The notes under the pieces were generated by a model, which saw nothing but the letters and a program-made list of their open reading frames with translations, ran no database searches and had not been told where the DNA came from. DNA of 64,000 bases, taken from Georgenia sp. EYE_87 (GTDB lineage Bacteria; Actinomycetota; Actinomycetes; Actinomycetales; Actinomycetaceae). This document shows positions 14,184-34,815 of this stretch, piece after piece; position 1 is the first letter of the stretch, and every line of letters begins with the position of its first letter. The position numbers and the translations under genes were made by a program. The stretch lies in the NCBI RefSeq assembly GCF_023148685.1, contig NZ_JAHXNL010000010.1, positions 1-64,000 on the forward strand. The letters are read 5' to 3'.

Positions 14184-16559
14184 CTACGGGACTCGGCGCA
14201 CACCCAGAGTGTCGCTCCTGTCGCCGTTCCAGTCGCCGACGTAGATCTCGTCGTCGGCGCGGCCGTAGACGAGGACGAGATCGGCCTTGCCGCCGGCAAT
14301 GGTGTCTTTGACGTGGTACTCGGAACCGCGGCGGACGGCGAGGGTGTCCTTGCGATCTCCGTTCCAGTCGCCGGCGAGGACGGTGTCCTCCGGGCGGCCG
14401 TAAACGACTACCTGGTCGGCCTTGCCGCCGGTGATGGTGTTCTTGATGTGGTACTCGGAGCCGCGGCGGACGGCGAGGGTGTCCTTGCGATCTCCGTTCC
14501 AGTCGCCGGCGAGGACCTGGTCGCCCGAGCGGCCGTAGACGACGACCTGGTCGGCGGGCCCGGAGGTCATGGAGTTGCGCACGTGGTACTGGGCGCCGCG
14601 GCGCACCGTGAAGGTGTCTTTCCCGTCGCCGTTCCAGTCGCCGACGAGGACGGTGTCGCCGGGGCGGCCGTAGGCCACTACCTGGTCCGCCGCGCCGCCA
14701 CCGAGGGCGTTCTTGATGTAGAAGAGGTTTCCCCGGCGCAGAGCGATGGTGTCCTTGTTGTCGCCGTTCCAGTCGCCGACGAAGACCTGGTCGGTCACCC
14801 TGCCGTACTGGAAGACGTGGTTGGCCCTGGTGGTCCACGCGTCGTTGAGGAAGAACCCGTAGCGCTGCTCGGTCGGAGCCGGCTTCGGGGCGGCGGGGTC
14901 TGTCGGCCCCGCCGGGTCGGTGGGTTCGTCCGGGTCGGGGGGGTCGGTCGGCTCCGTCGGGGGCGGCTCCTGGGGGGCCGGACTGCCGTCACCGGTCAGG
15001 AGGGCGGAGTGGACCTCGTACTCCACGTCCGCGGCGAGGATCATGAGGTCCCCGGTCCACCTGTCCTTGGTGCTGGTGGCGTCGTTGAAGCTGCCCGAGA
15101 AGACCTTCTCGGCCGAACCGAAGTCGATGCTGCCGGTCGAGCTCTCGCGCACGAGGATGTCGTCGTAGTTGATCGCCGACGTGTACACCACGTGCAGCGT
15201 CCTCTCGGCCTCGTTCAGCTGCACGATGCCCCGGGTCCCGCTGCCGGAGACCTCGTAGAACGGGTCCCAGCGTCCGGACGGGCGGCGGACGAGAAGTCCG
15301 AGATCGGGATGTGACGAGTCGTTGAAGGAGGTCTTGACCACCGCGTACAGCGTGCCGTCGGACGCCGTGGCGACGTTGATGTGGTCGTCCGCGAAGCCGG
15401 AACCGTTGCTGGCCGCGTAGGCCGCGCCCGGCAACTCGACGGCCCCCCACGAGCCGGGTGCCGAGCTGTTCGGGTGGAAACGGAAGCCGAAGCGGTCCCT
15501 CCGCTGGTCCGACCACATGACTCCGACACCGCCGGACATCGCGGCGACCACGGCGATGTCGTCCTTGTCGATGCCCGTCTCCAGGGTGACCGGACCCGAG
15601 AACGAGCTGTACGGGAAGCTGCTGTACTGAACCTCGACCGAGTTCTCGGTGTCGTAGGCCAGCCACATCCGGCCCGTGGCGTCGATGTCGATCGTGGCGG
15701 TCTCGCCGCCGCTGCCCAGGTCCACCGAGGTTGCTCCCGACCGCGAGCCCCAGGGCCGGTAGCTGCGCGGCCCGGAGTCATACTGGAGCGAGACGAGCTC
15801 GGTGGACCCGTCGTAGAGCAGCACGTGCACGACGTTGCCGACCGCCTTCACGTCGGCCCGCACCGTGGTGTCGTCGGTCAGGCGATAGACGTTGGTCCAG
15901 CTGCCGCCGTCGTGGCGCCAGACCCAGGTGCCGGAGGACGAGGCCAGCACGGCCCACCAGGTGCCGGCGTACTTCCAGGTCTTGGACTGCGGCTTCTCGC
16001 CGGTCGTGACGGTGGAGGAGATGGTCGCGTCGCCCTCGATGATCGCCGTGGCGGCGAGCTGCTCCGGCGCGGCAGCGCGCGCCCCTGGGGCGCCAGCGCT
16101 CGCGCCGTCGTCGCCGTGCCAGGCCAGGTTCACCAGGCCCGGCTCGTCCGACGGCGCCAGCACCTCGATGGCGTAGACGTCTCCGGCGTCGGCCTCGAAG
16201 GTGACGAGGGAAGTGGCGAGGTCGCCGTCGTCGTCGTTCGAGACCAGCGGGGTCTGACTCTCCACGTCGGCGTGGACCGTCAGGACGGTGTCCATCTCGC
16301 TGCCGTGCGTGTAGAAGCGGTAGGTGCCGGTCGCCGGGGCTATCCAGGCCCACCACAACGACGGGTCGTCACCGGAGTCGGCCGGTGAGGACAGCACCGT
16401 GACCGTGCCCTCGGCACCGGTGATCTCCGGGCCGGGCACAGCACCGCTCCCGGCGGTCGCTGCCGAGGCGCCCGCCGCCGGCAACATCGCCAGCACGACC
16501 GCCCCGGCCAGCAGCGCGGCTGCCCACCTCGCTGGCGGGACCTCTGCGGCTCTCGACAT
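14184..16559 (-). CDS. secreted beta-propeller protein with five C-terminal GDWNGD repeats
   Basis: A 791-aa exported protein. Residues 1-38 are a signal peptide. Residues about 45-150 look like a pre-peptidase C-terminal (PPC-like) beta domain (WWAWIAPATGTYRFYTHG). Residues about 165-520 contain repeated WxxD/BNR-like strands suggesting a propeller. A Pro/Thr/Asp linker leads to the terminal module: cap RYGFFLND, then five repeats of about 45 residues, each with a GDWNGDxxDT metal-binding loop. No catalytic signature is evident. ATG 16559 has AGGGAG 7 nt upstream; the longer open frame to 16748 encodes no signal peptide. The same module ends the next gene and the M23 peptidase at 33163, so surface attachment or glycan binding is a reasonable inference. 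Confidence 0.75.
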   Translation of the reverse strand: MSRAAEVPPARWAAALLAGAVVLAMLPAAGASAATAGSGAVPGPEITGAEGTVTVLSSPADSGDDPSLWWAWIAPATGTYRFYTHGSEMDTVLTVHADVESQTPLVSNDDDGDLATSLVTFEADAGDVYAIEVLAPSDEPGLVNLAWHGDDGASAGAPGARAAAPEQLAATAIIEGDATISSTVTTGEKPQSKTWKYAGTWWAVLASSSGTWVWRHDGGSWTNVYRLTDDTTVRADVKAVGNVVHVLLYDGSTELVSLQYDSGPRSYRPWGSRSGATSVDLGSGGETATIDIDATGRMWLAYDTENSVEVQYSSFPYSSFSGPVTLETGIDKDDIAVVAAMSGGVGVMWSDQRRDRFGFRFHPNSSAPGSWGAVELPGAAYAASNGSGFADDHINVATASDGTLYAVVKTSFNDSSHPDLGLLVRRPSGRWDPFYEVSGSGTRGIVQLNEAERTLHVVYTSAINYDDILVRESSTGSIDFGSAEKVFSGSFNDATSTKDRWTGDLMILAADVEYEVHSALLTGDGSPAPQEPPPTEPTDPPDPDEPTDPAGPTDPAAPKPAPTEQRYGFFLNDAWTTRANHVFQYGRVTDQVFVGDWNGDNKDTIALRRGNLFYIKNALGGGAADQVVAYGRPGDTVLVGDWNGDGKDTFTVRRGAQYHVRNSMTSGPADQVVVYGRSGDQVLAGDWNGDRKDTLAVRRGSEYHIKNTITGGKADQVVVYGRPEDTVLAGDWNGDRKDTLAVRRGSEYHVKDTIAGGKADLVLVYGRADDEIYVGDWNGDRSDTLGVRRVP
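14326..14516 (-). repeat. identical 56-bp blocks inside the repeat module
   Basis: Bases 14326-14381 and 14461-14516 match over all 56 positions at a spacing of 135 bp, exactly 45 codons. They cover the GDWNGDRKDTLAVRRG part of two neighbouring repeats. Perfect DNA identity points to recent duplication or gene conversion. Confidence 0.85.
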
Positions 16560-16737
16560 GGCTTGCTCCCTGACGCTCCGGCTGGCTCGTACGCCGGAAG
16601 GCTGCGAGCTCGCGCGAGAAGATGAAGGGTCCTGATCCGTGGTGCTGCCGAGTATCACAACCGGGTCACGGCGTCGGACTTTTTCGGAGGGTGATTTCCG
16701 GGCGACGAAGGAGGTCACCCTTGTGGGAGGACAGAAG

Positions 16738-16766
16738 GGGACCCGCACCCCATGGGTGCGGGTCCC
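16738..16766 (-). terminator. strong intrinsic terminator after the LamG protein
   Basis: A 13-bp perfect stem, GGGACCCGCACCC with its complement, closes a 3-nt loop 24 bp beyond the TAA at 16791. On the minus strand it is followed by CTTCTGT. It separates the LamG protein from the related secreted protein downstream. Confidence 0.7.
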
Positions 16767-16790
16767 GGCCCTGCTGCGAAGCGCCGCTCC

Positions 16791-18521
16791 TTACGGAACT
16801 CGACGGACGCCGAGGGTGTCGGTTCCGTTGCCGTCCCAGTCGCCGACGTAGACCTCGTCGTCGACTCGGCCGAAGCTCTGGACGAGATCGGCTGCGCCAC
16901 CCGAGATGGAGTTCTTGACGTGGTAAACGTTCCCGCGTCGCACGGCGAAGGTGTCCCCGTTCTTGCCGTCCCAGTCACCGGCCAGGACCGTGTCGGTGGC
17001 CCTGCCGTACGCGATAACCCGGTCAGCGACGCCGCCAGAGACCGAGTTCTTGACGTAGTAGGTGTTCCCGCGACGGACGGCGAGCGTGTCCTTGCTGTCG
17101 CCGTCCCAGTCGCCGACCACGACGTCATCGCCGGCCTTGCCGTAGTGCACCACCTGGTCGGCAGGCCCACCGGAGATGGTGTTCTTGATGTGATAGGCGT
17201 TGCCGCGCCGAACCGCGAAGGTGTCGACGCCATCTCCGTCCCAGTCTCCGACCAGCACCACGTCGCCGGTCTTGCCGTAGGCGATGACCTTCTCGGCCTG
17301 TCCGCCACGCTGTGCGTTGCTCACGTAGAACATGTTGCCCCGGCGCACGGTAATCGTGTCTCCGCCCTTTCCGTCCCAGTCACCCATCAGAACCTCGTCG
17401 GTGAACTTGCCGTAGACGAACACGTGGTTCGCCTTGGACGACCAGGAGTCGTTGAGGAAGAACCCGTACCGCTGCTCGGTCGGCGTTCCCGGACCGGGGG
17501 CGGACGGTCCCGTCGAGGTCGAGAAGGTGTGCGTCCAGGTGGTCTTCGCGCCGGCGGCGAAGGTGTAGCCGTCCAGCGCCCGGGCGGTGACCGTGACGGT
17601 GCCGCTGCCCTCATGGGTGCCTGCAGCCTTCACAGCTCCGCTGACGAGGTACTCCACGCCGGTCCTCGTGGGGATGGTGTACGTGTCGGACCCGGTGCCG
17701 GCGCGGTCGTCGAAGGTCACATCCGCCGGCGCCACCTCCACGTCCTCCTCGACAGGCTCGAAGGCCGGGTCAGCGTTCATGAGCTCGGTGATCTCGGCGG
17801 GCGTGAGCGCCCGGTCGTAGATGTGCACCGAGTCGACCGCGCCATTGAACGGTGTTGAGCCGCTGGAGTCAGACTGGGCGCCGATGGTCAGGGGAAGGTC
17901 GTTGGTCGCGACCTCTGCAGGGCCCGTGATCGACGGTCTCGCGTTTCCGTTGACGTACAGCGTCATGCTGGTTCCGTCATAGACACCGACCAGGTGGTTC
18001 CATTGCCCTGGCGTGACAGCGGTCACAGCGCCGGGCGTCGCGGACGAGTCGACCCGGAACGTGTTCTGGTTGGTCTGCTGGTTGAGCCGGAAGAACGCGA
18101 CATCGTTGTTCGACAACGACAGCTCATAGCCACCAGTGACGCCTTGCACCGCCTTCTTGACGATCGACTCCGTGGCAAACGCATCGGGATTCACCCAAGC
18201 AGCCACAGACATCGGACCGGTGAGGTCAAGCTCGGGGGAGTCGGGGATCGTGACGCGGCCGCCGGTGAAGTCCAGTGCGCCGCTGCCACGGTGACCAGGG
18301 ATCCGGGCGACCGACCCCTGGATGGTGCCGTCGTTGTCGCCGACCGAGTCGACGACGGCGGACCCGGAGCCTTCGTCCATCCGCCAGCCTCCGACGAGGC
18401 CCTCGTCGGTCGCTGCAGCGGCCCCTGAAACTGGTAGCACCACGATGGTGGCGCCGAGTGCCATGGCCGCCAGCGCTGGCAGCGCTCTTCGCGACCGGTG
18501 AGTCAACAACGTCTCTGACAT
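16791..18521 (-). CDS. secreted LamG-domain protein with five C-terminal GDWDGD repeats
   Basis: A 576-aa exported protein. Residues 1-36 are a signal peptide ending near SGAAAA. Residues about 40-245 are a LamG/concanavalin-like jelly roll (GGWRMDEGSG, MSVAAWVNPD, GQWNHLVGVYDGTSMTLYVNG, NGAVDSVHIYDRALTPAEI), a fold that often binds sugars. Residues about 255-340 form a beta-rich spacer. From about residue 350 comes the RYGFFLND cap with five GDW(D/N)G repeats ending VRRVP, as in the neighbouring protein. ATG 18521 has GGAGAG 7 nt upstream. A paralogous surface-binding protein is the safest description; no enzymatic residues are seen. Confidence 0.78.
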   Translation of the reverse strand: MSETLLTHRSRRALPALAAMALGATIVVLPVSGAAAATDEGLVGGWRMDEGSGSAVVDSVGDNDGTIQGSVARIPGHRGSGALDFTGGRVTIPDSPELDLTGPMSVAAWVNPDAFATESIVKKAVQGVTGGYELSLSNNDVAFFRLNQQTNQNTFRVDSSATPGAVTAVTPGQWNHLVGVYDGTSMTLYVNGNARPSITGPAEVATNDLPLTIGAQSDSSGSTPFNGAVDSVHIYDRALTPAEITELMNADPAFEPVEEDVEVAPADVTFDDRAGTGSDTYTIPTRTGVEYLVSGAVKAAGTHEGSGTVTVTARALDGYTFAAGAKTTWTHTFSTSTGPSAPGPGTPTEQRYGFFLNDSWSSKANHVFVYGKFTDEVLMGDWDGKGGDTITVRRGNMFYVSNAQRGGQAEKVIAYGKTGDVVLVGDWDGDGVDTFAVRRGNAYHIKNTISGGPADQVVHYGKAGDDVVVGDWDGDSKDTLAVRRGNTYYVKNSVSGGVADRVIAYGRATDTVLAGDWDGKNGDTFAVRRGNVYHVKNSISGGAADLVQSFGRVDDEVYVGDWDGNGTDTLGVRRVP

Positions 18522-18690
18522 GGTTCTCTCCGCCAAGTTGGTCTCTGCCACGGGCCGCCGCCGGTTGGCCACGGAGTGTGACTTGGCTCACCTTTGAGCC
18601 GTGCGGGGAGTCTTGCAGAGGGCCTGCGATTGCGAAGTCGATTGACGGAAACGAAATCAGGATGTTTGCGTCGTCCTGCGAAGCCGCAGG

Positions 18691-19227
18691 TCAGTGCCTC
18701 GAGGTGAAGACCAGATACCGGTAGCACAGGTACCGGAAGGCTGTTCCGAGCACCAGGCCGACGCCGTTGGCCGCGATGTTGTCCGCCAGCGGGGACGTGA
18801 GACCGAGGGCGTAGTGGCTCACCGCGAGGCTCCCCACCGCGATCGCCATGCCGCCGAGGTTGACCAGCGCGAACATCGTGAGCTCGCGCACCTGGGACTC
18901 ACGCCGGCTGCCGGCGAAGGTCCAGTACCGGTTGCCCAGCCAGGCCACGAGCACCGAGACCGTCACCGAGATCACCTTGGCCGTGAGTGGTTTCTCGCCC
19001 AGCACCTCGCCGGGGCCGAAGCGCAGGAGGTTGAACAGGCCGACGTCGACGATGAACGCCGTGCCGCCGACGGCGCAGAAGCGCACGATCTCGAGCAGCC
19101 AGGCGCCGAGGGTCTGGCCGCGCAGGAAGCGCAGCACGAGGCCCGGCGCGGGCGCGGGTGCGGCAGGACCGGTCGGGACGCCAGGGGCGGCTGCCTCCGT
19201 GGCGTTCTCGATGCTGGACCGCGTCAC
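18691..19227 (-). CDS. GtrA family membrane protein
   Basis: A 178-aa protein with four transmembrane helices and GtrA features (IVRFCAVGGTAFIVDVGLF, WLGNRYWTFAG, RYLCYRYLVF). GtrA proteins act in translocation of lipid-linked sugars or in cell-wall arabinogalactan assembly. The GTG at 19227 follows a TACGCT box by 6 nt. It is divergent from purK with only 34 bp between starts. The N-terminal 40 residues are Ala/Pro-rich. The envelope link fits the surrounding genes, but the exact sugar is unknown. Confidence 0.82.
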   Translation of the reverse strand: MTRSSIENATEAAAPGVPTGPAAPAPAPGLVLRFLRGQTLGAWLLEIVRFCAVGGTAFIVDVGLFNLLRFGPGEVLGEKPLTAKVISVTVSVLVAWLGNRYWTFAGSRRESQVRELTMFALVNLGGMAIAVGSLAVSHYALGLTSPLADNIAANGVGLVLGTAFRYLCYRYLVFTSRH

Positions 19228-19233
19228 CGGTCC

Positions 19234-19253
19234 AGCGTATCCGCGGTTAGGCT
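19234..19253. promoter_or_regulatory. back-to-back leaderless promoters for gtrA and purK
   Basis: TACGCT on the minus strand (19239 to 19234) ends 6 nt before the GtrA start, and TAGGCT on the plus strand (19248-19253) ends 8 nt before the purK start. The two -10 boxes are only 8 bp apart, so the promoters must overlap. Confidence 0.5.
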
Positions 19254-19261
19254 CGACGATC

Positions 19262-20479
19262 GTGGAAGCACCGGTCGTGGCAGTCGTGGGTGGGGGCCAG
19301 CTGGCCCGGATGATGCAGCAGCAGGCGATCGCGCTGGGCGTGCACCTTCGGGTTCTCGTCGAGTCGCCCACCGTCGCCACCGCCCAGGTGGTGCCGGATG
19401 CCCCGGTCGGGGCGGCCTCTGACGCCGCGGCGATCCGCTCGCTCGTCGACGGCGCCCACGTGCTCACCTTCGAGCACGAGCACGTCCCGAACGAGCTGCT
19501 CCGGGAGCTCGAGGCCGACGGCGTGCCCGTCCGCCCCGGGCCCGACGCCCTGGTCCACGCCCAGGACAAGATCGTCATGCGCACCCGCCTGACCGACGTC
19601 GGCGCGCCGTGCCCGGCGTGGGCGCCGGTCCGGACCGAGGCCGAGCTGGCCGCGTTCGGCGACGCCACCGGCTGGCCCGTCGTCGTCAAGACGGCCCGCG
19701 GCGGCTACGACGGCAAGGGCGTGCGGGTGGTCCGCTCCGCGGCCGAGGCCGCCGACTGGCTCGAGGCCCTCGACCCCGGCGACGCCCTGCTCGCCGAGGA
19801 GAAGGTGCCCTTCACCCGCGAGCTCGCCGTGCTCGTCGCCCGGCGCCCCACCGGCGGGCCCGACGGCGCCGGCGAGGTGCGGTCCTGGCCCGTCGTCGAG
19901 ACGGTCCAGCAGGACGGCGTCTGCTTCGAGGTCCTCGCCCCGGCTCCGGACCTGGACCCGGCGACGGCGGCCCGGGCGCGAGAGATCGGCGAGCGCATCG
20001 CCACCGGGCTCGGCGTCACGGGCGTCCTCGCCGTCGAGATGTTCGAGGTTCACCACGACGACGGCACCTCCCGCCTCGTGGTCAACGAGCTCGCGATGCG
20101 CCCGCACAACTCTGGCCACTGGACCATCGACGGCGCCGTGACCAGCCAGTTCGAGCAGCATCTGCGCGCCGTCCTCGACTGGCCGCTCGGCGGCGCGGAC
20201 GCCAGTGCCGACCACTCCGTGATGGTGAATCTCCTCGGGTCGGCGCTGGAGGACCCGCGCGCCGCATACCCCGAGCTCATGGCCCGCTACCCCCAGGCCA
20301 AGGTGCATCTGTACGGCAAGGAGGTGCGGCCCGGACGCAAGCTCGGGCACGTCACCGTCACCGGGCCCGACCTCGCCGAGGCGCGGCGCGTGGCCCACGC
20401 CGCCGTCGCCCTGCTGCGCGGGGACGACGTCGAGGTCGAGGCGATCACCGAGGACGACGCCGACCACGTCGACCGGTAG
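19262..20479 (+). CDS. purK: N5-carboxyaminoimidazole ribonucleotide synthase
   Basis: A 405-aa ATP-grasp enzyme converting AIR, ATP and bicarbonate to N5-CAIR in purine synthesis. Visible signatures are VVGGGQLARMMQQQA at the N-terminus, FEHEHV, the ATP-binding VVVKTARGGYDGKGV, and NELAMRPHNSGHWT near the metal-binding strand. GTG 19262 is the leaderless start; the frame upstream to 18848 is antisense to the GtrA gene. The partner purE is on the same strand 2.2 kb away, separated by a gene on the opposite strand. Confidence 0.95.
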   Translation: MEAPVVAVVGGGQLARMMQQQAIALGVHLRVLVESPTVATAQVVPDAPVGAASDAAAIRSLVDGAHVLTFEHEHVPNELLRELEADGVPVRPGPDALVHAQDKIVMRTRLTDVGAPCPAWAPVRTEAELAAFGDATGWPVVVKTARGGYDGKGVRVVRSAAEAADWLEALDPGDALLAEEKVPFTRELAVLVARRPTGGPDGAGEVRSWPVVETVQQDGVCFEVLAPAPDLDPATAARAREIGERIATGLGVTGVLAVEMFEVHHDDGTSRLVVNELAMRPHNSGHWTIDGAVTSQFEQHLRAVLDWPLGGADASADHSVMVNLLGSALEDPRAAYPELMARYPQAKVHLYGKEVRPGRKLGHVTVTGPDLAEARRVAHAAVALLRGDDVEVEAITEDDADHVDR

Positions 20480-20504
20480 ACGCGGACAGCCGCCGTGCGC
20501 TGCC

Positions 20505-23284: not shown

Positions 23285-23291
23285 TACCGGC

Positions 23292-26935: not shown

Positions 26936-27331
26936 CTCCATCGCCGGGCAGGTGTCCATGACGACGGCGAGGCCGGCCGCCGCGGCGCGCGCCGCGGCCG
27001 CCTCGTCGACCACGCCGAGCTGGAGCCACACCGCGCCGGCGCCGACGGCGATCGCCTGGTCCACGATGTCGCCGGCGAGCTCGGACCGCACGAAGACGTC
27101 GACGACGTCGATCCGGCCGGGCACGTCGGCGAGCGTGGCGTACCCCGTGGCGCCGTGGACCTCCTCCGCCCTCGGGTGGACCGGGGCGATCTCCATCCCG
27201 AGGTCGTCCCTCAGGTACCTCGCGATGCCGTAGGCGGTCCGGGTGGTGTTCCGGGACAGCCCGACCACCGCCCAGCGGCCGGGTGTGGTCAGGAGACGGC
27301 GGACGACGTCCGGGTCGTTCACGTGAGCCAT
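26915..27331 (-). CDS. CoA-binding protein (YccU-like)
   Basis: A 138-aa Rossmann-fold protein of the CoA_binding_2 family: WAVVGLSRNTTRTAYGIARYL near the N-terminus binds the nucleotide, followed by PVHPRAEEVHGATGYATLAD and VWLQLGVVDE. The precise role is unknown; members bind CoA and may report metabolic state. ATG 27331 gives the standard length. The longer open frame to 27940 is antisense to the next gene and is not used. Confidence 0.85.
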   Translation of the reverse strand: MAHVNDPDVVRRLLTTPGRWAVVGLSRNTTRTAYGIARYLRDDLGMEIAPVHPRAEEVHGATGYATLADVPGRIDVVDVFVRSELAGDIVDQAIAVGAGAVWLQLGVVDEAAAARAAAAGLAVVMDTCPAMEAPALGI

Positions 27332-27356
27332 GCCCCAAGCGAACCACGTCCGCTGA

Positions 27357-27362
27357 TACGTT
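27357..27362 (+). promoter_or_regulatory. -10 box before the short leader peptide
   Basis: TACGTT ends 6 nt before GTG 27369. That GTG opens an 11-codon frame (stop included) coupled to the large membrane protein gene, the same geometry as the other leaderless starts here. Confidence 0.45.
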
Positions 27363-27368
27363 CCACCA

Positions 27369-27401
27369 GTGCACGACGCCGTCGGGACCAGGGTCCCGTG
27401 A
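27369..27401 (+). CDS. putative 10-residue leader peptide MHDAVGTRVP
   Basis: The frame GTG to TGA encodes ten residues. Its stop (TGA, 27399-27401) overlaps the GTG of the membrane protein at 27398 in a GTGA junction, and the leaderless box lies 6 nt upstream. A ribosome finishing the peptide would re-start on the large gene. The peptide has no run of one amino acid that would suggest attenuation, so simple translational coupling is more likely. It may also be chance. Confidence 0.4.
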   Translation: MHDAVGTRVP

Positions 27402-29380
27402 CCTGGGGCGAGACCGTCCCGCCCGGTCTGGCGCTGTGGGCGTCGCTGGTGCTGCCGGGCTGGGCGTCCCTGCGTCTCCTCGGGGTCCGCGGGCTCGTCG
27501 CCCTCGCCGCGGCACCGGCGGTGACCACCGCGCTCGCCGGCGTTCTCGGACTGCTGTACCCGGTCCTCGAGGTCCGGTGGACCCTGCCCTCCGCCGTCGT
27601 CGGTGTGGCGGCCGGCGTGCTGGTCGCCGCCGCGGCCGGGTTCCTCCTCGGCACCGCGGCCCGGCGGAGCACGGACGAGCGCCATGCGCTCTGGCTGCCC
27701 CCGCCGCTGCCGGAGCGCTCGGCGGGCCTGCTGAGCGGCTCCCTCGCGCTGGCGGTCGCGCTGGTGTGCGTCCCGATGGCGGTGGGAATGTCGTCGCCCG
27801 ACTCGCCGGCGCAGGCCTGGGACGCGGTGTTCCACCTCAACGCGATCGGGTCGGTCCGCAGCACCGGGAACGCCTCCACCCTCGGTGGTCTCGCGGAGCT
27901 GTACGGCGGCCGGGCGGTGTACTACCCCGCGGTGTGGCACGCGATCGTGGCGGTCGCGCCCGGGTTCACCTCGGTGCCCGCCGCCGCCAGCACCGCCGCA
28001 CTGGTGGTCGGCGGGCCCGTCTGGCTGGTCGGTGTCGCCGCGTTCACCCGCGCGGTGCTGCCGGAGCGGGCGCTGCCCGCGCTGGTCGCCCCCGTCCTGG
28101 CCGCCACCTTCGTCGCCTTCCCGGTCGTGGTGCTCACCGTCCTCGCCCAGGAGCCGATGGGCCTGAGCCTCGCGCTCCTGCCCGGGGTTCTCGCGCTGCT
28201 CGTCGTGGCACTGAGAACCCGCTGGTTCTGGCCGGCGAAGGTCTCAGCGGCCCTCGCCCTCGCCCCGGCCGCGGCGGGCGTCGCGCTGGCGCACGGCTCG
28301 GGGGTGTTCTCGCTGCTCGTGCTCGGCGGGCTCCCGAGCGTGGTGATCCTCGTCCGGCAGGCACGCCAGGGCTGGGCCGCGGGGCGGCCGCGGGCCGTGC
28401 TGGCCGGCGTCGCGGTCGCCCTCGTCGTCACGGCGACCACCGTCACCCTGCTCGTCACCTTCCCGGCCTTCCTCGCGACCCTGTCCTACGAGCGCGCGGG
28501 TGCCGGGAGCTACCTGCCGGTCCTGGCCAGGCTCGTCACGGACACCCCGCAGGTCTACTGGTACGGGAAGGGTGCGGGGAATCTCGTGGTGAGTGCCCTC
28601 GCGATTATCGGGGCGGCCATGAGCGTTCGCGAGCAACGGCACCGGCACCTGGTGGCCGTCCTCGTCGTCGCCGCGGCCCTGGTCCTGCTCGCAGCCGGCC
28701 CGCCCGAGAACCCGCTGCGCGTGCTCACCGGGTTCTGGTACACGCAGGCGGCGCGCATCGCACCCCTCGTGGTCATCCCCGCGGTCGTGCTCGCGGCGGG
28801 CGCTCTCGCCGCGCTCGCCGAACGGCTCGACGCCGGCCTCCACGCCCGGGCGCGCGCGGTCCCGCCCTGGGCGGTGCCGGTCTCGCTGCTCCTCGTCGTC
28901 GTCATGCTCACCGCCGGGGCCCGGTGGGACCTGAAGGTGCGGATCACCGCCTCCGTGCACGATCCCGGTGCGATCGCCTGGGGCACCATGCTCGTCGACG
29001 ACGAGCTCGCCATGATCGAGCGCCTGCCGGAGCGCCTGCCCGAGGGCGCAGTCGTCCTCGGTGATCCGTTCAACGGCTCGGCCTACCTGCCCGCGCTCGC
29101 GGGCGTCGACGTCGTCTTCCCGCAGCTCGGCCCCCTGGGCGGCGAGGACCGTCGTCTGCTCGAGACGTCCTTCCGCGAGCTGCGCGACGACCCCGCCGTG
29201 TGCCGCGCGGTGGACGCCCTGGGCGTCACGCACGTCTACACGGACACCGCCGGCGCGGAGGACGGCGCCAAGGTGTCCGACCGCACCTCCGGTCTGCGGG
29301 AGGTCGACACCTCCGCCGGGTTCACGCTCGTCGACCGCGGGGGCACCGCGAGCGTGTGGCGGCTGACGGCCTGCTCGTAG
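27398..29380 (+). CDS. large multi-pass membrane protein, DUF6541-like (paralogue 1)
   Basis: A 660-aa protein with roughly 12-14 hydrophobic helices and a soluble C-terminal domain from about residue 525. Shared blocks with the genes at 50449 and 53386 are WDAVFHLNAIGS, GGLAELYG, YYPAVWHAIVA, GDPFNGSAYLPALAG and LGVTHVYTDT. This pattern resembles the actinobacterial DUF6541 family; the topology is like GT-C glycosyltransferases, but no proven activity is known. GTG 27398 is supported by the coupled leader. A role in sugar transfer from lipid-linked donors is inferred from fold and locus. Confidence 0.7.
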   Translation: MTWGETVPPGLALWASLVLPGWASLRLLGVRGLVALAAAPAVTTALAGVLGLLYPVLEVRWTLPSAVVGVAAGVLVAAAAGFLLGTAARRSTDERHALWLPPPLPERSAGLLSGSLALAVALVCVPMAVGMSSPDSPAQAWDAVFHLNAIGSVRSTGNASTLGGLAELYGGRAVYYPAVWHAIVAVAPGFTSVPAAASTAALVVGGPVWLVGVAAFTRAVLPERALPALVAPVLAATFVAFPVVVLTVLAQEPMGLSLALLPGVLALLVVALRTRWFWPAKVSAALALAPAAAGVALAHGSGVFSLLVLGGLPSVVILVRQARQGWAAGRPRAVLAGVAVALVVTATTVTLLVTFPAFLATLSYERAGAGSYLPVLARLVTDTPQVYWYGKGAGNLVVSALAIIGAAMSVREQRHRHLVAVLVVAAALVLLAAGPPENPLRVLTGFWYTQAARIAPLVVIPAVVLAAGALAALAERLDAGLHARARAVPPWAVPVSLLLVVVMLTAGARWDLKVRITASVHDPGAIAWGTMLVDDELAMIERLPERLPEGAVVLGDPFNGSAYLPALAGVDVVFPQLGPLGGEDRRLLETSFRELRDDPAVCRAVDALGVTHVYTDTAGAEDGAKVSDRTSGLREVDTSAGFTLVDRGGTASVWRLTACS

Positions 29381-29459: not shown

Positions 29460-29465
29460 TAGCCT
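29460..29465 (+). promoter_or_regulatory. -10 box upstream of the CAP-domain gene
   Basis: TAGCCT lies 42 nt before ATG 29508, allowing a short leader with the GAGGAG ribosome site. Upstream, TTATCGGAC occurs twice (near 29397 and 29437). Confidence 0.4.
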
Positions 29466-29507
29466 CGACGGCGGTCCGGTACACCGACGCGAGGAGCAGA
29501 CGGGCAC

Positions 29508-30311
29508 ATGATCAAGCGAGCGGCTCTGGCCGCGGCAGGGCTGGCCGTAGGGATCGGGTTGGCCGCCGGCGTGTCCCAGGCCGCGATCGGGCCCGTCTCC
29601 CAGCTCACCACCGCCCACGTCTCCACGGCGGAGCAGGCGCCGAAGCCCAAGGAGGCGCTGGCCACCGCCACGCCCGCACCCCGGCCGGAGCCGACCGCCG
29701 CGACGCCTCAGGCCCCCGAGGAGCCCCCCGAGGAGCCGACCGAGGTCCCGGTCGCCGGCGAGGCGACCGGCGAGGCACCCGTCGAGCCCGAGGCCCCGGT
29801 GGAGGAGCCCGCCGCGGCCCCCGAGCCGGAGGCGCCGACCGAGGATACCGACGCCCCGGCTCCCGCTCCTGAGCCTGTGCCCGCCCCGGCGCCGGAGGCG
29901 CCGGACTCCGGCTCGTCCGCCACCGACCAGGGCTTCGACCAGCGCATGGTCGCCCTCATCAACGCCGAGCGTCAGGCGGCCGGCGTGGCGCCGCTGCAGT
30001 ACCAGGCCGGGCTGCGTGCGGGTGCGCTGGCGCACTCGAGCTGGATGGACGACAACGACTTCCAGCACGCCTCCGACGCCACGATGGACGCCGACACCGC
30101 GGTAGCGGGCTGCTCGGGCGGCTGGGCCGAGAACATCTACTGGGCGTCGGACACCGGGACGTCGCCCGAGGCGGCGATGAGCGCCTACATGGACTCGCCC
30201 GGGCACCGGGAGAACATCGTGCACCCAGACCTGCGCCACGTCGCGACCGGCACGGTCATGACCGACGGCGGGCTGTTCAACACGCAGCGGTTCAGCTTCG
30301 GCTGCGCCTGA
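29508..30311 (+). CDS. secreted CAP/SCP-domain protein
   Basis: A 267-aa exported protein. Residues 1-26 are a signal peptide. Residues about 45-140 are a Pro/Glu/Ala-rich linker of the wall-spanning type. Residues 145-267 are a CAP (SCP/PR-1) domain with MVALINAERQAAGVAPL, LAHSSWM, a WAENIYW segment and SPGHRENI. Two cysteines (in AVAGCSGG and FSFGCA) may form a disulfide. Bacterial CAP proteins are often extracellular, with roles in lipid or wall binding that are not settled. ATG 29508 has GAGGAG upstream. Confidence 0.88.
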   Translation: MIKRAALAAAGLAVGIGLAAGVSQAAIGPVSQLTTAHVSTAEQAPKPKEALATATPAPRPEPTAATPQAPEEPPEEPTEVPVAGEATGEAPVEPEAPVEEPAAAPEPEAPTEDTDAPAPAPEPVPAPAPEAPDSGSSATDQGFDQRMVALINAERQAAGVAPLQYQAGLRAGALAHSSWMDDNDFQHASDATMDADTAVAGCSGGWAENIYWASDTGTSPEAAMSAYMDSPGHRENIVHPDLRHVATGTVMTDGGLFNTQRFSFGCA

Positions 30312-30341
30312 CGGTCGGTCGGCGCCCCCGCACGACGAGCG

Positions 30342-31610
30342 CTACCCGGGCGTCCGCACGTCCGACGGCGTCAGCTCGCCGTCCCGCAGACGCTGGAAGA
30401 ACTGCGGGGCGAGGTCCTCGTCGAGGAGCACGGTCGACCCGATCGTGCCCGGTCGGTAGTCGAAGTCCGCGATCGGTGGCGCGCCCGTCACGCCGTCGGG
30501 GCCGGTGGCGTTGCGGAATGCCAGGGCCATGCGCCCGAGGTCGACGATGCCCGTGTCCGTGTCGGTGACCAGAGCCCCGGTGCCGGCCTCGACGAGCTGG
30601 ACGTGGTCGACCGGGTTGACGAGGGTGGCGGGCGCGGCGACCTCCCTCATCACCGCCCCGATCACCTGGCGCTGACGGTCCGCACGGCCGATGTCGCCGT
30701 TGGGGTCCGCGTAGCGCATCCGGGCGAACGCCAGGGCGGTGGGGCCGTCGGCGACCCGGCAGCCGGCCGTCCACCGCAGCCCGGAGAGCTCGTCGTCGAC
30801 GTCGTAGTCCAGGCACAGCTCCACGCCGCCCACCGCGTCGACAACCTCCTGGACCCCGCCCATCCCGATCTCGACGTAGTGGTCGACGGTCAGGCCGGTC
30901 AGCTGCTCCACCGTCTCCGCGAGCAGCGGCGGGCCACCCAGGGAGTAGGAGGTGTTGAGCTTCTCCGGGCCGTACCCGGGGATCTCGACGAGGGTGTCGC
31001 GCGGGAGCGAGACGAGGGCCGTCGGGCCGGAGTCCGGCACGTGCATCACCATGATGGTGTCGGAGCGCTGGCCCTCGGTCGCGTCCGCCACCGCGCCGTC
31101 GGCGCGGGAGTCGGAACCGGCGAGGAGGTAGGTCGTCCCCGCGGTGCCCGGAGCGCCGGTGAGCGCGTCGACGTGCTGGATCTTGCCGTTCGCCCAGATC
31201 AGCAGGCCGATCGGCCAGGCCAGCAGCACCACGAGCAGCACGCCGAGCAGCACCAGGCCCGGGCGGCGCCGCCTGCGCCGGCCCGTCGCGCTCGGGGCGG
31301 GCGGCGCCGGAGCCCGGACTGGGCGCCGGGGCGGCGCCGCCGTCGTCCCGGCGGAGGAGGGTTGCGCACCGCGCGGCGAGTACGAGGGCGGCGCGGCGTC
31401 GGGCGTGCGGCCGCGGCCGGCGGGGCGCTGAGCCGGTCGCGGCGCGGCCTCGGACGAACCGCGGGCCGGGCGTGCGTGCCGACGCGGATGGGCGGGCTGC
31501 GACGTCGGCTCGCGCGGACCGACCGGACGGGCGGTGCGCGGGTCCGGGCGGCTGCCGCCCGAGACGGGGCGGAAGCTGGGGGGCAGTTTCGCCCGCTCGT
31601 CCTCGCTCAT
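30342..31610 (-). CDS. LytR-CpsA-Psr family glycopolymer transferase
   Basis: A 422-aa protein with a 115-residue disordered Arg/Pro/Ala-rich cytoplasmic tail, one transmembrane helix at about 118-140, and an extracellular LCP domain. LCP residues are seen in LLAGSDSR, RSDTIMVMHV, SLPRDTLVEIPGYG and RMRYADPNGDIGRADRQRQ. The family moves polyprenyl-phosphate-linked polymers onto peptidoglycan or galactan. ATG 31610 has GGAGG close upstream. It follows a second LCP gene on the same strand after 97 bp, so they may be one operon. They are likely ligases for polymers made by this locus. Confidence 0.92.
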   Translation of the reverse strand: MSEDERAKLPPSFRPVSGGSRPDPRTARPVGPREPTSQPAHPRRHARPARGSSEAAPRPAQRPAGRGRTPDAAPPSYSPRGAQPSSAGTTAAPPRRPVRAPAPPAPSATGRRRRRRPGLVLLGVLLVVLLAWPIGLLIWANGKIQHVDALTGAPGTAGTTYLLAGSDSRADGAVADATEGQRSDTIMVMHVPDSGPTALVSLPRDTLVEIPGYGPEKLNTSYSLGGPPLLAETVEQLTGLTVDHYVEIGMGGVQEVVDAVGGVELCLDYDVDDELSGLRWTAGCRVADGPTALAFARMRYADPNGDIGRADRQRQVIGAVMREVAAPATLVNPVDHVQLVEAGTGALVTDTDTGIVDLGRMALAFRNATGPDGVTGAPPIADFDYRPGTIGSTVLLDEDLAPQFFQRLRDGELTPSDVRTPG

Positions 31611-31707
31611 GCCCCTCCACGTCTCGCTGGTCCCGGCCCCGCGCCGGCAGGGCGCCGTTCGTGCGCACGCCAGGGTAGCCCCGACACCTGTGCGACGGGG
31701 CCGGCCG

Positions 31708-32985
31708 TCACTTGGTGCACACCGGGATGGTCGGCTCGGGGGAGGGGGCGGCCGTGACCACGCCGTCGTCGGTCGGCTCCTCGGTGGGCGGCGAGGTCGG
31801 GTCGTCCGTCGCGGTCTCCGTCGGCTCGGGGACGGGCGCCTCTCCCGTGCCGGTCAGCGTCGCGTCGATGGGACGGTCCGCCTTGATATTCTCCCACATC
31901 TGCTCCGCGTCCACGGAGGGGACGACGCGCGGACCCGCCCAGTCGAAGGGCATGGTCGCGAAGCTGATCGCCCCGGGCTCGAGGCCGCGCAGCGAGTTGG
32001 CGAGACCCGCCATGGTCGGCAGGCCGCCGATGTACGGGCCGGTCGTCAGGGTGGACGTGGCGGCGTCGAGGAACTGGTAGAGCGCGGGCAGGTCGGTGAG
32101 GAGGTTCTTGCTCAGGGCCTCGCGGGCGATCGCCGCGACGAGCTCCTGCTGGCGGCCGATGCGCGAGATGTCGGAGCCGTCGCCGACCGTCTTTCGCGCG
32201 CGGGCGACCCCGAGCGCCTCGGTGCCGTCCAGCACCTGGCACCCGGCCGCCACCTGCAGCTGCGCGAACGGGTCGTCGATCGGCTCAGGGATGTAGAGGG
32301 GGACGCCGTCGAGCGCCTCCACGACGTTCTTGAACCCGGCGAAGTCCACGACCACGAAGTCGTCGATGAAGATGCCGGTCAGGTCCTCGACGGTCCGGAT
32401 CGTGCAGGCAGCCGCGGCGCCGACGTCGCCGGTCTCGCCACCGGTCTGGAAGGCCGAGTTGAACATCACGTCGTACTGCTCGGGCGTCTCGGTGCCGTCC
32501 GGGAGCCGGCAGGACGGGACGTCGACGAGGGTGTCGCGCGGGATCGAGACGACGTCGACGCGGGACCGGTCGGCGGAGACATGCGCGATCATCGTCGTGT
32601 CCGAACGCATGCCGGTGACCTCGCCGGCGGCGCCGGCGCCGTCGACGTCGCTCTCGCCCGCGCGCACGTCGGACCCCATGACCAGCAGGTTGATCGGCTG
32701 GCCCGCCTTGGAGTCGATCGGCTCGGCGGAGGCGACGGCGGAGGGGCGGTCGTCCCCGAGCAGATCGTCGATGTCGTGGCGGCCGATGTTGCCCTGCAGC
32801 TCGCTGTATGCGAAGGTCGCGCCGGACCCGAGGAACAGGGCCGCGGCCAGGGCGCCGACCCCGGTGCGGCGGAGCAGCCGGTGCCGCTCGAGCGTCCGGG
32901 CGTGCCGGGGAGACGTGAGCGGCTGCTCCGTCACGGCTCGCGTCAGGGACGCCCGGGGTCCGGGCGCGTTGGCATGTCTCGGCAC
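31708..32985 (-). CDS. LytR-CpsA-Psr family glycopolymer transferase, second copy
   Basis: A 425-aa LCP protein: transmembrane helix about residues 40-62, then LVMGSDVRAGE, RSDTTMIAHV, SIPRDTLVDVPSC, FNSAF and ARKTVGDGSDISRIGRQQE. It ends in a Thr/Pro/Glu-rich tail with a terminal PVCTK. Extra cysteines in the LCP domain (VPSCRL, AAACTIRT, AGCQVL) may pair outside the cell. GTG 32985 follows a TAGGAT box by 6 nt. It is divergent from the M23 peptidase gene. Confidence 0.92.
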   Translation of the reverse strand: MPRHANAPGPRASLTRAVTEQPLTSPRHARTLERHRLLRRTGVGALAAALFLGSGATFAYSELQGNIGRHDIDDLLGDDRPSAVASAEPIDSKAGQPINLLVMGSDVRAGESDVDGAGAAGEVTGMRSDTTMIAHVSADRSRVDVVSIPRDTLVDVPSCRLPDGTETPEQYDVMFNSAFQTGGETGDVGAAAACTIRTVEDLTGIFIDDFVVVDFAGFKNVVEALDGVPLYIPEPIDDPFAQLQVAAGCQVLDGTEALGVARARKTVGDGSDISRIGRQQELVAAIAREALSKNLLTDLPALYQFLDAATSTLTTGPYIGGLPTMAGLANSLRGLEPGAISFATMPFDWAGPRVVPSVDAEQMWENIKADRPIDATLTGTGEAPVPEPTETATDDPTSPPTEEPTDDGVVTAAPSPEPTIPVCTK

Positions 32986-32991
32986 GGTGTG

Positions 32992-32997
32992 ATCCTA
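32992..32997 (-). promoter_or_regulatory. leaderless -10 box for the LCP pair
   Basis: TAGGAT on the minus strand ends 6 nt before GTG 32985 and supports that unusual start codon. Confidence 0.5.
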
Positions 32998-33107
32998 CGG
33001 TTCGTTTCGACGACCCACGGTACAGGCGGCGCGGTCGCGCGCCGTACCCCTTCCCGGCGGGCGGCACGACGCTCCCGGGATTTCCGGACGTGCGGCGGAT
33101 CCTGCTC

Positions 33108-33113
33108 TAGGGT
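33108..33113 (+). promoter_or_regulatory. -10 box upstream of the M23 peptidase gene
   Basis: TAGGGT lies 49 nt before ATG 33163, leaving a leader of roughly 40 nt. No strong -35 is visible. Confidence 0.35.
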
Positions 33114-33162
33114 CGGCGGTGGACCAGCTCGGAGCCCCTCGGGGCGCACCTCGGGGGATCAC

Positions 33163-34815
33163 ATGGCACGGTCGTTCCGCGTTGTTCTCGCCGCCACTCT
33201 CGTCGGAGCCCTGAGCGCGATGCCGACGTCGTCGGCCTCTGCCGCCCCGCCGCGCGGCGCCGTCGACGGACCTCTCGACACCGGCACGTACGCCGTGACG
33301 TCCTACTTCGGGGCCCGCTGCCTGCCGATCATCAACGCCTCGACGTCCCACGGCGGCGTCGACCTGGGCGCCGCCGACGGCTCGCCCCTCTACGCCGTGG
33401 CCGACGGGCGCGTGGTGCGCGCCGAGCCCAACTTCTCCGCGGGCCAGTGGCTGGTGGTCGAGCACGTGGTGGGCGGGCGCCGGGTCCAGGTGAGCTACTC
33501 CCACATGTGGGACGCCGACCGGTTCGTCCGCGTGGGGCAGACCGTGCGGCGCGGCCAGAAGATCGCCGAGGTCGGCTCGTCCGGCGTCTCCACCTCACCG
33601 CACCTGCACCTCGAGGTGTGGCTGGGCTCCTACGGCAGCGGCACCCAGGTGGACCCGCTCGGGTGGTTCCGGTCCCAGGGGGTCGACCTGCTCGGTGCGG
33701 CCATGAGGGTCGTGCCGCGGTCCGGCCCGGGCAGCTGCACGTACTACGCCGTCGGACCCACCCCCGTGCGCACGTCGGCCTCGGCCGGCGCCCCCGTGGT
33801 GGCCACGGTGCCGAACCACACGGTCCTGACGTCCAGCCCGGGCACCAAGTCCAACGGGTTCCTGCCGGTCCGGGCGGGGAACGTGTCGGGGTGGGCGCAC
33901 GCCAGCGACGTCTCACCCACCCGGCTCGGGGTGCCGACGGCGCGCACCACCGGGGACGTGGTGCTCAGGAGCGCGCCCAGCGCCTCCGCCGCGGAGGTGG
34001 CGCCGCTCGGTGCGGGAACCGGCCTCGAGGACGTCGTGGCACTGTCCGCCGGGTGGTACCAGGTCGAGACGGGCGGGCGCACCGGCTGGCTGCCCGCCGG
34101 GCGGGTGCGGCTCGAGGCCGGCACGTCGCGCACGATCGACTACGGCTTCTTCCTCGCGAACACGTTCACCACGACGGCGGACACCGTCTTCGAGTACGGC
34201 GACTACTTCGACGAGTTCTTCGTCGGCGACTTCGACGGCGACGGCGTGGACACATTCGCGTACCGGCGCGGACGGATCTTCTACATTCGGGACACCAACC
34301 TGCCAGGCAGGCCGGATCGGACCGTCGCCTACGGGAGGCCGGGGGACACGGTCCTCGTCGGCGACTGGGACGGCGACGGGGTGGACACGTTCGCGGTCCG
34401 GCGGGGCAGCAGCTACCACATCAAGAACTCCGTCACCTCGGGACCGGCCGACATCGTGGTGGTTTACGGGCGCTCCGGCGACACGGTGCTCGTGGGTGAC
34501 TGGGACGGGACCGGCGGGGACACGCTCGCCGTGCGCCGCGGGGCGGAGTACCACGTCAAGAACTCGATCACGGCCGGAGCCGCCGACCAGGTGGTCGTCT
34601 ACGGCCGGTCGGGAGACGACGTGCTCGCCGGGGACTGGGACAGCGACGGGCGCGACTCGCTGGCCGTCCGGCGCGGGGCGGAGTACCACGTCAAGAACGC
34701 CATCGCGCCGGGCGGCGCCGACGTCCGGGTGGTTTACGGTCGCGCCACCGACGAGGTCTACGGCGGGGACTGGAACGGCGACGGCGAGGACAGCCTGGCT
34801 GTCTATCGCTTCTGA
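33163..34815 (+). CDS. secreted M23 peptidase with SH3 domains and five GDWDGD repeats
   Basis: A 550-aa exported protein. A signal peptide covers about residues 1-29. Residues about 40-180 are an M23/LytM domain with ligands in SHGGVDLG and SPHLHLEVW. Two SH3-like segments follow (about 190-325; TPVRTSASAGAPVVATV, GWYQVETGGRTGWLPAG). Residues 327-550 are the YGFFL cap with five GDW(D/N) repeats also found in the genes at 14184 and 16791. M23 enzymes cut peptidoglycan cross-bridges. The domain order fits a wall-remodelling enzyme with wall-binding modules. The open frame extends far upstream to 31534, but that part is antisense to LCP genes. The end overlaps the next convergent gene by 13 bp. 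Confidence 0.9.
   Translation: MARSFRVVLAATLVGALSAMPTSSASAAPPRGAVDGPLDTGTYAVTSYFGARCLPIINASTSHGGVDLGAADGSPLYAVADGRVVRAEPNFSAGQWLVVEHVVGGRRVQVSYSHMWDADRFVRVGQTVRRGQKIAEVGSSGVSTSPHLHLEVWLGSYGSGTQVDPLGWFRSQGVDLLGAAMRVVPRSGPGSCTYYAVGPTPVRTSASAGAPVVATVPNHTVLTSSPGTKSNGFLPVRAGNVSGWAHASDVSPTRLGVPTARTTGDVVLRSAPSASAAEVAPLGAGTGLEDVVALSAGWYQVETGGRTGWLPAGRVRLEAGTSRTIDYGFFLANTFTTTADTVFEYGDYFDEFFVGDFDGDGVDTFAYRRGRIFYIRDTNLPGRPDRTVAYGRPGDTVLVGDWDGDGVDTFAVRRGSSYHIKNSVTSGPADIVVVYGRSGDTVLVGDWDGTGGDTLAVRRGAEYHVKNSITAGAADQVVVYGRSGDDVLAGDWDSDGRDSLAVRRGAEYHVKNAIAPGGADVRVVYGRATDEVYGGDWNGDGEDSLAVYRF
34141..34812 (+). repeat. YGFFL + five-repeat module in the M23 peptidase
   Basis: Five repeats of about 45 codons follow a YGFFLAN cap, each with GDxDGDGxDT-like loops and a YGR turn. 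Matching modules are encoded at about 14187-14862 and 16794-17468 on the minus strand. Confidence 0.8.

What the first reader, a model, noticed from the sequence alone, without database searches (positions are those of the whole stretch)
14184..34815. Shared YGFFL + exactly five GDWxGD repeats in three secreted proteins
Proteins at 14184, 16791 and 33163 have unrelated N-terminal parts (PPC plus propeller-like, LamG, M23 peptidase) but the same C-terminal module: a YGFFL cap, five 45-residue repeats with Dx(D/N)xD loops, and an end strand. Exactly five each time fits a closed five-bladed propeller. It could be a surface-anchoring or glycan-binding module shared by this organism's exoproteins, perhaps recognising the polymer made by the neighbouring locus.
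Basis: partly seen in the sequence, partly recalled or inferred. Interest (0 to 1): 0.72.

Follow-up and report, generated by a model that had tools for sequence, protein, structure and literature searches.

The report
Five-bladed propeller module on secreted proteins
Three secreted bacterial proteins share a ring-shaped five-bladed domain, probably a non-covalent anchor that holds different enzymes to the cell-wall sugar polymer; the ring is well supported, what it binds is not yet tested.

Summary
The proteins at 14184, 16791 and 33163 share a module of exactly five 45-residue repeats (225, 225 and 224 aa) with nothing left over. The "YGFFL cap" is the first strand of repeat 1, and the "end strand" is the last strand of repeat 5. 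The assembly, which looks like a Georgenia relative, holds 19 copies: 18 have five repeats, one has four. Of 96 distinct complete-ORF modules examined, 94 span five repeats, although chains start and stop at different strands in different lineages. AlphaFold2 with 104 aligned sequences gives pLDDT 97.9 and 20 strands in the order CD-(ABCD)x4-AB. A closed five-bladed propeller is therefore very likely. All 19 proteins have a signal-peptide-like start (heuristic). Partners include peptidoglycan hydrolases and unrelated exoenzymes. Module genes often lie near a twin-LCP wall-polymer locus (8 of 14 genomes within 6 kb, about 1 expected). A non-covalent wall-glycopolymer anchor is the best explanation but is unproven. 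The specific idea that it binds ManNAc3NAcA is not supported across the phylum. Only chance-level Pfam/NCBIfam hits and no solved relative were found for the window modules. It is a distinct five-bladed variant in the VCBS/FG-GAP propeller world.

The parts
14184..16748 (-). Secreted protein (ORF as listed; signal-peptide-like stretch near ORF residue 74), C-terminal propeller module
14184..14861 (-). Module A: five 45-aa blades (225 aa) plus stop
16791..18572 (-). Secreted LamG (Laminin_G_3) protein with C-terminal propeller module
16791..17468 (-). Module B: five 45-aa blades (225 aa) plus stop
33163..34815 (+). Secreted M23 peptidase with SH3_3 and C-terminal propeller module
34141..34815 (+). 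Module C: five blades (224 aa) plus stop; AF2 pLDDT 97.9, pTM 0.92
30342..31610 (-). LytR-CpsA-Psr (LCP) protein, wall-polymer attachment (function recalled)
31708..32985 (-). Second LCP protein, 178 bp from and divergent to the M23-module gene
36022..36705 (+). Hexapeptide acyltransferase (WbpD/UtrJ-like)
   Evidence: pathway assignment by comparison with PMC13274773 passages
36636..37820 (+). DegT-type aminotransferase (WbpE-like)
37822..38862 (+). GFO/IDH/MocA oxidoreductase (WbpB-like)
44383..45465 (-). UDP-GlcNAc 2-epimerase family (WbpI-like)
49080..50417 (+). UDP-sugar dehydrogenase (WbpA-like)
55383..57510 (-). Wzt-like (Wzt_C) and Wzm-like ABC polysaccharide exporter genes
57535..58836 (-). 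Polysaccharide pyruvyl transferase

Best explanation
The module is a closed five-bladed beta-propeller of the VCBS/FG-GAP type. Each 45-residue repeat gives four strands: A (VLVGDW), a metal-type loop (DxDGDGxDT), B (TLAVRRG), C (YxVKNS) and D (ADxVxxYGR). In the window proteins the chain starts at strand C, so N-terminal CD and C-terminal AB strands make the fifth blade together and the ring closes only at five. It is spread as a whole domain onto many secreted proteins. Most likely it works as a non-covalent lectin-like anchor that keeps peptidoglycan hydrolases, nutrient enzymes and adhesin-like proteins on the producer's own wall by binding an LCP-attached wall glycopolymer. The strongly conserved Arg-Arg of the blades, on the BC/DA' side where related propeller lectins bind sugars, would make up to five cationic pockets for an anionic polymer. 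Shown: repeat number, strand order (as a prediction), signal peptides (heuristic), partners, and clustering with an LCP locus. Inferred: wall binding, ligand, pocket residues, metal binding.
For: Five repeats in 18 of 19 genome copies and in 94 of 96 distinct complete-ORF modules. Two ring openings with the same total: CD-(ABCD)x4-AB in the window and most Actinomycetota copies read, BCD-(ABCD)x4-A in the Bifidobacterium and several Lachnospiraceae/Clostridiales copies read. AF2 with 104 sequences: pLDDT 97.9, pTM 0.92, 20 strands. The Foldseek matches listed (50 of 526) are largely propeller proteins by recall, among them the PVL lectins. Signal-peptide-like stretch in 19 of 19 and no LPxTG. 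Varied partners: in the genome M23, Amidase_2 x2, SpoIID, NlpC/P60, CAP, 5'-nucleotidase, phytase, subtilase, GGACT, BNR_4+LGFP, LamG (12 of 19 proteins above Pfam cut-off); elsewhere Amidase_2 in 8 and CAP in 6 of 75 partner segments. Clustering: 8 of 19 copies on one 138.7-kb contig (0.6 expected); a module within 6 kb of the LCP ortholog in 8 of 14 genomes (0.97 expected, P about 5e-7 under uniform placement). The two Arg are present in 96% and 98% of 560 aligned repeats. A Streptomyces propeller lectin (UmbA4, six blades) binds a wall teichuronic acid (PMC13274773, passages read).
Against: No binding data exist. The metal loop lacks the usual Asp at position 9 (T 86%, S 12% of 560 repeats, with Asp at position 8 in 98%), so calcium binding may differ. 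The loop-CD W and loop-DA' GW described for tachylectin-2/PVL-type sites are not in the repeat consensus. The Arg pair is weaker in blade 5 (65 and 73 of 85 rows) and its second Arg in blade 1 (72 of 85). Clustering with the LCP locus may partly reflect genomic islands, tandem copies and related genomes; module positions were read by hand from a truncated list; 6 of 14 genomes show no module within 6 kb, and 10 of 24 module-bearing genomes have no LCP ortholog at E<=1e-60. In a 296-genome Actinomycetota sample, genomes with a module match (22, about half of them weak) and genomes with WbpB (16) overlap only in the window's own genome. One genome copy and one Lachnospiraceae copy have four blades.
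Confidence: 0.6

Rival explanations
1. The module is a lectin for foreign glycans (prey bacteria, plant or host polymers, biofilm matrix): it aims exoenzymes outward rather than keeping them on the producer's wall.
For: UmbA lectins of Streptomyces, including five-bladed propellers, aim toxins at competitors (PMC13274773, passages). Several partners are lytic to peptidoglycan. The genome holds many divergent copies (the 12 other full-length matches are 54-66% identical to module C).
Against: Partners include ordinary nutrient enzymes (phytase, 5'-nucleotidase, subtilase). No ALF (UmbC-type) repeat was found in the genome, although the control for that search was uninformative. The genes cluster at the producer's own wall-polymer locus.
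Confidence: 0.2
2. The module is a protein-protein docking ring: the exoproteins assemble on a protein scaffold through it, not on a glycan.
For: FG-GAP propellers of integrins bind proteins (recalled), and KICSTOR complex chains are the top Foldseek matches. Many different proteins share one module, as cellulosome parts share dockerins (recalled).
Against: No scaffold candidate was identified or sought. The Arg pair recurs in the blades, which fits repeated small-ligand sites better than a single protein interface.
Confidence: 0.12
3. The module is only a stability or secretion add-on (rigid cap) without a specific ligand.
For: It is found both at the C-terminal end and at the N-terminal side of proteins, so position does not matter.
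Against: Repeat-specific invariants (R-R, D8-T9) are conserved across phyla beyond the fold motif, and the genes cluster at a wall-polymer locus.
Confidence: 0.08

Closest known systems
VCBS / FG-GAP beta-propeller supercluster (PF13517 FG-GAP_3; PVL lectins, integrin alpha head)
   Same: Four-stranded blades, DxDxDG-type loop AB, often carbohydrate-binding (PMC8023676 and PMC9218822 passages). FG-GAP_3 matches 4 of 16 non-window genome copies at E<=0.01, one with a whole-protein score over the cut-off. PVL lectins are among the Foldseek matches.
   Different: Five blades of 45 aa, where the solved PVL, TcB and AUDH members are seven-bladed (PMC8023676). Position 9 of the metal loop is T/S. 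Arg-Arg motif in the repeats. No FG-GAP_3 match in the three window proteins at E<=1; the only Pfam hits touching those modules are below cut-off.
Tachylectin-2 and 'VCBS actinolectins'
   Same: Tachylectin-2 is a five-bladed secreted propeller lectin with repeats of about 47 aa (recalled). Actinolectins are actinobacterial secreted VCBS propellers (PMC8023676 passage).
   Different: Tachylectin-like propellers lack the DxDxDG motif, which this module has. The module also occurs in Bacillota, whereas actinolectins are described as exclusive to actinobacteria and as alone or preceded by a TIM barrel (PMC8023676).
UmbA propeller lectins of Streptomyces umbrella toxins
   Same: C-terminal propeller lectins on secreted proteins; 12 five-bladed families are described and a six-bladed one binds ManNAc3NAcA teichuronic acid (PMC13274773 passages).
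   Different: UmbA proteins carry an inactive trypsin-like domain, which is not among the partner families seen (all tables; 25 of 58 families shown). No ALF repeat hit in the genome (control uninformative). UmbA sequences were not compared directly.
Gram-positive non-covalent wall anchors (SLH, CWB2, LysM, SH3b, choline-binding repeats; recalled)
   Same: A repeated secreted module shared by unrelated exoproteins and attached to wall hydrolases.
   Different: Different fold: a closed propeller with near-fixed repeat number.

Membership tests
beta-propeller fold (five-bladed) | Whole number of four-stranded blades arranged as a closed ring | tested here: met
   Five 45-aa repeats, 20 predicted strands with pLDDT 97.9, two ring openings with the same total, propellers among the Foldseek matches. 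A prediction, not a solved structure; closure not measured on coordinates.
VCBS / FG-GAP propellers | DxDxDG motif in loop AB | tested here: met
   Loop positions 1, 3, 5, 6 in 560 aligned repeats: D 98%, D/N 99%, D/N 94%, G 87%. The second table (544 loops) forces positions 1-3 by its search pattern and is not used here.
VCBS / FG-GAP propellers | Asp at loop position 9 (DxDxDGxxD, recalled for FG-GAP) | tested here: not met
   T 86%, S 12% at position 9; D 98% at position 8 (560 repeats)
VCBS / FG-GAP propellers | G and W in loop CD, GW in loop DA' (PMC8023676; stated there not to be universal) | tested here: not met
   Loop CD has G (91%) and A (92%) but no conserved W; loop DA' is YGRxxD without GW
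VCBS / FG-GAP propellers | Pfam FG-GAP_3 score over cut-off | tested here: inconclusive
   1 of 19 copies over the cut-off (27.7 vs 26.9 whole-protein bits, L110); 3 more below it at E<=0.01; window proteins no FG-GAP_3 match at E<=1
Tachylectin-like | Absence of DxDxDG with GW in loop DA' | tested here: not met
   against PMC8023676
UmbA lectin | Inactive trypsin-like domain on the same protein, ALF-repeat UmbC partner in the genome | tested here: inconclusive
   No trypsin family in the own-genome tables or among the 25 of 58 families shown for other genomes; ALF 0 hits but the control rang nowhere
Cell-wall anchor module | Binds the producer's wall | not testable with these tools
   needs a binding assay

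The most novel reading that the evidence does not exclude
An undescribed, ring-closed five-bladed propeller family is a generic non-covalent surface anchor of Georgenia, Actinomyces, Actinotignum and some gut Bacillota. It reads an anionic wall glycopolymer installed by LCP enzymes through Arg-Arg pockets, one per blade, a propeller counterpart of SLH/CWB2 anchoring, with its genes kept beside the polymer locus.
Probability: 0.4. Interest if true: 0.7.

Novelty: new variant of a known kind. Interest (0 to 1): 0.5.

Why it matters
How exoenzymes are held at the surface of Actinomycetota is, as far as I recall, little known outside sortase, SLH and LysM-like systems. A module with near-fixed blade number, giving 25-32 matches in each of three Georgenia-group genomes (matches, not counted genes) and often lying near wall-polymer genes, would offer a testable anchor-ligand pair and a name for many unannotated proteins. 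It is also a natural case where blade number stays at five although middle blades of one protein resemble each other more (63-66%) than matched blades of other proteins (56-60%). This contrasts with VCBS propellers reported to vary in blade number within a lineage (PMC9218822, passages).

Tried and rejected
Single-sequence AF2 of module C: useless (pLDDT 36.4); replaced by the 104-row alignment. PDB sequence search with one sequence (only chance-level hits) and with the profile (none at E<=1). Viral fold library: no match at E<=0.001. Phage genomes: no tblastn match. PHROGs: only weak fragmentary hits.

Idea rejected: a general tie to the ManNAc3NAcA pathway. WbpB is present in 12 of 24 module-bearing genomes at E<=1e-30, but in a 296-genome phylum sample 22 module carriers (E<=1e-3) and 16 WbpB carriers (E<=1e-90) share only the window's own genome. 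About half of the 22 are weak, distant matches, and the search scored only up to 10 and 7 candidates per genome.

Idea weakened: strict five in distant relatives. In 28 ORFs of the phylum-sample loci (two of them the own genome's) a regular-expression count was noisy (5 in 10, 6 in 7, 4 in 7, 1 or 2 in 3, 7 in 1); it both missed real A strands and took in chance ones. By reading most GDW-type ones have five A strands, one (L123) appears to have four, and relatives with 40-residue GDY-type repeats have five or six. Strict five is claimed for the close family only.

Retrieval bias: the 80 public loci were the best matches to a five-blade query out of 338, so copies with fewer blades could be under-sampled; the own-genome search is the fairer count. 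Tallies hold some genes twice (overlapping loci), and arrays cut by locus ends (22 fives, 2 sixes, 7 shorter) were set aside; removes identical modules (96 left, 16 of them from the own genome, the three window copies not among them). An earlier thought that the Lachnospiraceae exception was cut short by a stop was dropped: no repeat follows it.

In one search distances were entered by hand; one search did not list all matches; module counts per genome are match counts (upper bounds), except 19 genes for the own genome; one LCP per genome was assumed although four genomes have two or three; G312 has both on one large contig but far apart and was coded as no neighbour, like G301 and G313.

Full report
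OBSERVATION. In the proteins at 14184-16748 (-), 16791-18572 (-) and 33163-34815 (+) the motif GDW/GDF recurs five times at exactly 45-residue steps, and the region from YGFFL to the stop is 225, 225 and 224 aa. Cut from YGFFL, it falls into five 45-mers with no remainder (the last of module C is one residue short). Pfam confirms M23 plus SH3_3 and LamG as partners. The N-terminal part of the 14184 protein has no relevant Pfam hit at E<=1, and the Pfam and NCBIfam hits that touch the modules are chance-level and below cut-off.

COPY NUMBER IN THE GENOME. The window lies in an unnamed 4.35-Mb assembly whose closest public matches are Georgenia (kinship inferred from hits only). The module search gave 25 matches, which belong to 19 genes. 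With a repeat HMM, 15 of the 16 genes outside the window have five repeats and one has four; with the three window genes this is 18 of 19. Twelve of 19 modules end the protein; seven are followed by 71-501 residues. The four-repeat copy lies between LGFP and BNR_4 domains. Two of its units are 90% identical in DNA with a 63-nt identical run, so loss of a unit by recombination and by assembly collapse are both possible.

COPY NUMBER ELSEWHERE. Of 338 confirmed relatives in genome contigs the best 80 were kept. Among complete ORFs there, 73 arrays gave five HMM hits and 8 gave six (some genes occur in two loci), but all eight span only 221-233 residues. Reading several of them shows why: in the Bifidobacterium and several Lachnospiraceae/Clostridiales copies the chain starts at strand B (DTLAVRRG...) and ends with a bare strand A (YAGKWK). 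They have the same five A, B, C and D strands, opened at another point of the ring. Of 96 distinct complete-ORF modules (16 from the own genome, window copies not counted), 94 span 4.7-5.2 repeats. The two exceptions are the four-blade copy above and a Lachnospiraceae metagenome ORF with four GDW repeats and none downstream. Constant total with movable ends is what a closed ring predicts and an open solenoid does not. Retrieval favoured five-blade copies, and more distant relatives with 40-residue GDY repeats have five or six by reading.

STRUCTURE. AF2 with 104 aligned modules gives pLDDT 97.9 and pTM 0.92, with every residue at 90 or above, and twenty strands in the order CD-(ABCD)x4-AB. The same protein alone gave pLDDT 36.4, so the result rests on the alignment. 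Foldseek against the PDB gives 526 matches at E<=10, six at E<=0.001, all KICSTOR complex chains. The 50 listed include Tc-toxin, BBS and PVL-lectin chains (their propeller nature is recalled), with query TM up to 0.52. No solved chain matches by sequence or profile at a meaningful E-value.

CONSERVATION. In 560 aligned repeats the strongest positions are GDW, Y/F-G, D, the loop D-W-D/N-G-D/N-G-x-D-T/S, and R-R at the end of strand B (96% and 98%). In the 85 rows of alignment A1 the Arg pair is full in blades 2 and 3, nearly so in blade 4, and weaker in blade 1 (second Arg 72 of 85) and blade 5 (65 and 73 of 85). Loop AB keeps DxDxDG, but the usual Asp at position 9 (recalled) is T/S. Strand B ends on the BC/DA' side (topology recalled). 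In PVL and tachylectin-2 the DA' loop helps form the sugar pocket (PMC8023676, passages); placing the Arg pair there is inference.

PARTNERS AND SECRETION. All 19 proteins show a signal-peptide-like stretch by a hydrophobicity heuristic (17; L114 and L115 after extending the search). None has LPxTG; the genome does encode two sortase-family proteins. Twelve of 19 have a partner family above Pfam cut-off: M23, LamG, Amidase_2 twice, GGACT, SpoIID, BNR_4 with LGFP, CAP, 5'-nucleotidase, NlpC/P60, phytase, subtilase. Five of these 12 (M23, Amidase_2 twice, SpoIID, NlpC/P60) are peptidoglycan-active families by recall. In other genomes, 75 non-redundant partner segments (of 104) match 58 families (25 shown), led by Amidase_2 (8), CAP (6) and 5'-nucleotidase (4), with glucosaminidase (3) and GH25 (2).

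NEIGHBOURHOOD. The window holds two LCP genes (30342-32985), an acetyltransferase/aminotransferase/oxidoreductase trio (36022-38862), a 2-epimerase, a UDP-sugar dehydrogenase, flippase and ABC exporter genes and a pyruvyl transferase. This set fits the UDP-ManNAc3NAcA route that PMC13274773 describes for S. griseus teichuronic acid (passages). Eight of 19 module genes lie on the same 138.7-kb contig (0.6 expected). Gene calls in regions of four other genomes, chosen because module genes cluster there, show the adjacent LCP pair in all four, and WbpB/WbpE-like genes in three (not in G296), among or within tens of kilobases of module genes. Over 14 of 24 genomes with an ortholog of the LCP at 31708, a module lies within 6 kb in 8, within 12 kb in 9 and within 25 kb in 10 (expected 0.97, 1.73 and 3.19 under uniform placement). 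The genomes are not independent and module genes also cluster with one another, so the P values are indicative only.

TEST THAT FAILED. If the ManNAc3NAcA sugar were the general ligand, module and WbpB should co-occur. They do in 12 of 24 module-bearing genomes. But in 296 sampled Actinomycetota genomes the module search rings in 22 and WbpB in 16, with only the window's own genome in both, about what chance gives. G. subflava (G296; 25 module matches) has no WbpB at E<=1e-30. The ligand, if a wall polymer, must be broader or differ between lineages.

MECHANISM. Best reading: secreted proteins carry the ring as a non-covalent anchor; repeated cationic pockets grip an anionic wall glycopolymer and keep the enzymes near the cell. 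In my judgement the ring is close to certain (about 0.95), surface retention likely (about 0.6), the neighbouring polymer as ligand possible (about 0.35).

NOVELTY. I searched the held library with eight term sets. I found the VCBS supercluster papers (PMC8023676, PMC9218822) and the umbrella-toxin paper (PMC13274773), each read in passages only, but no paper in those listings whose title or abstract start describes this module as an anchor. Most subscription literature is not in the library. It is a distinct five-bladed variant of a known fold group.

Noticed in passing
window 36022-38862, 44383-45465, 49080-50417, 55383-58836: A complete-looking gene set for UDP-ManNAc3NAcA with ABC exporter and pyruvyl transferase: probably a pyruvylated, teichuronic-acid-like wall polymer (inference).
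   Followed up: partly
L107:7725-10457 (-), contig C2:83724-86456 of the same genome: A four-blade copy between LGFP and BNR_4 domains, opened at strand B; two units share a 63-nt identical run.
   Followed up: partly
L059:3281-5980 (+), Faecalicatena contorta: By reading, the same LGFP-propeller-BNR_4 layout as the four-blade Georgenia copy, but with five blades: suggests transfer between Actinomycetota and Bacillota (domains not scanned one by one).
   Followed up: no
L066, L059, L067, L080: Ring opened at strand B instead of C, with the last strand A lacking the metal loop.
   Followed up: yes
window 27155-29380 and 53350-55341: Two DUF6541 proteins in the polymer region; relatives also lie next to module genes in Actinomyces ruminicola (L160).
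   Followed up: no
alignment A1, blades 2-4: Middle blades resemble each other more within a protein (63-66%) than matched blades between proteins (56-60%), so blades seem homogenised while their number stays five.
   Followed up: partly
L091:6841-8373 (+), Lachnospiraceae metagenome assembly: A second four-repeat array, opened at strand A, with no repeat downstream.
   Followed up: partly
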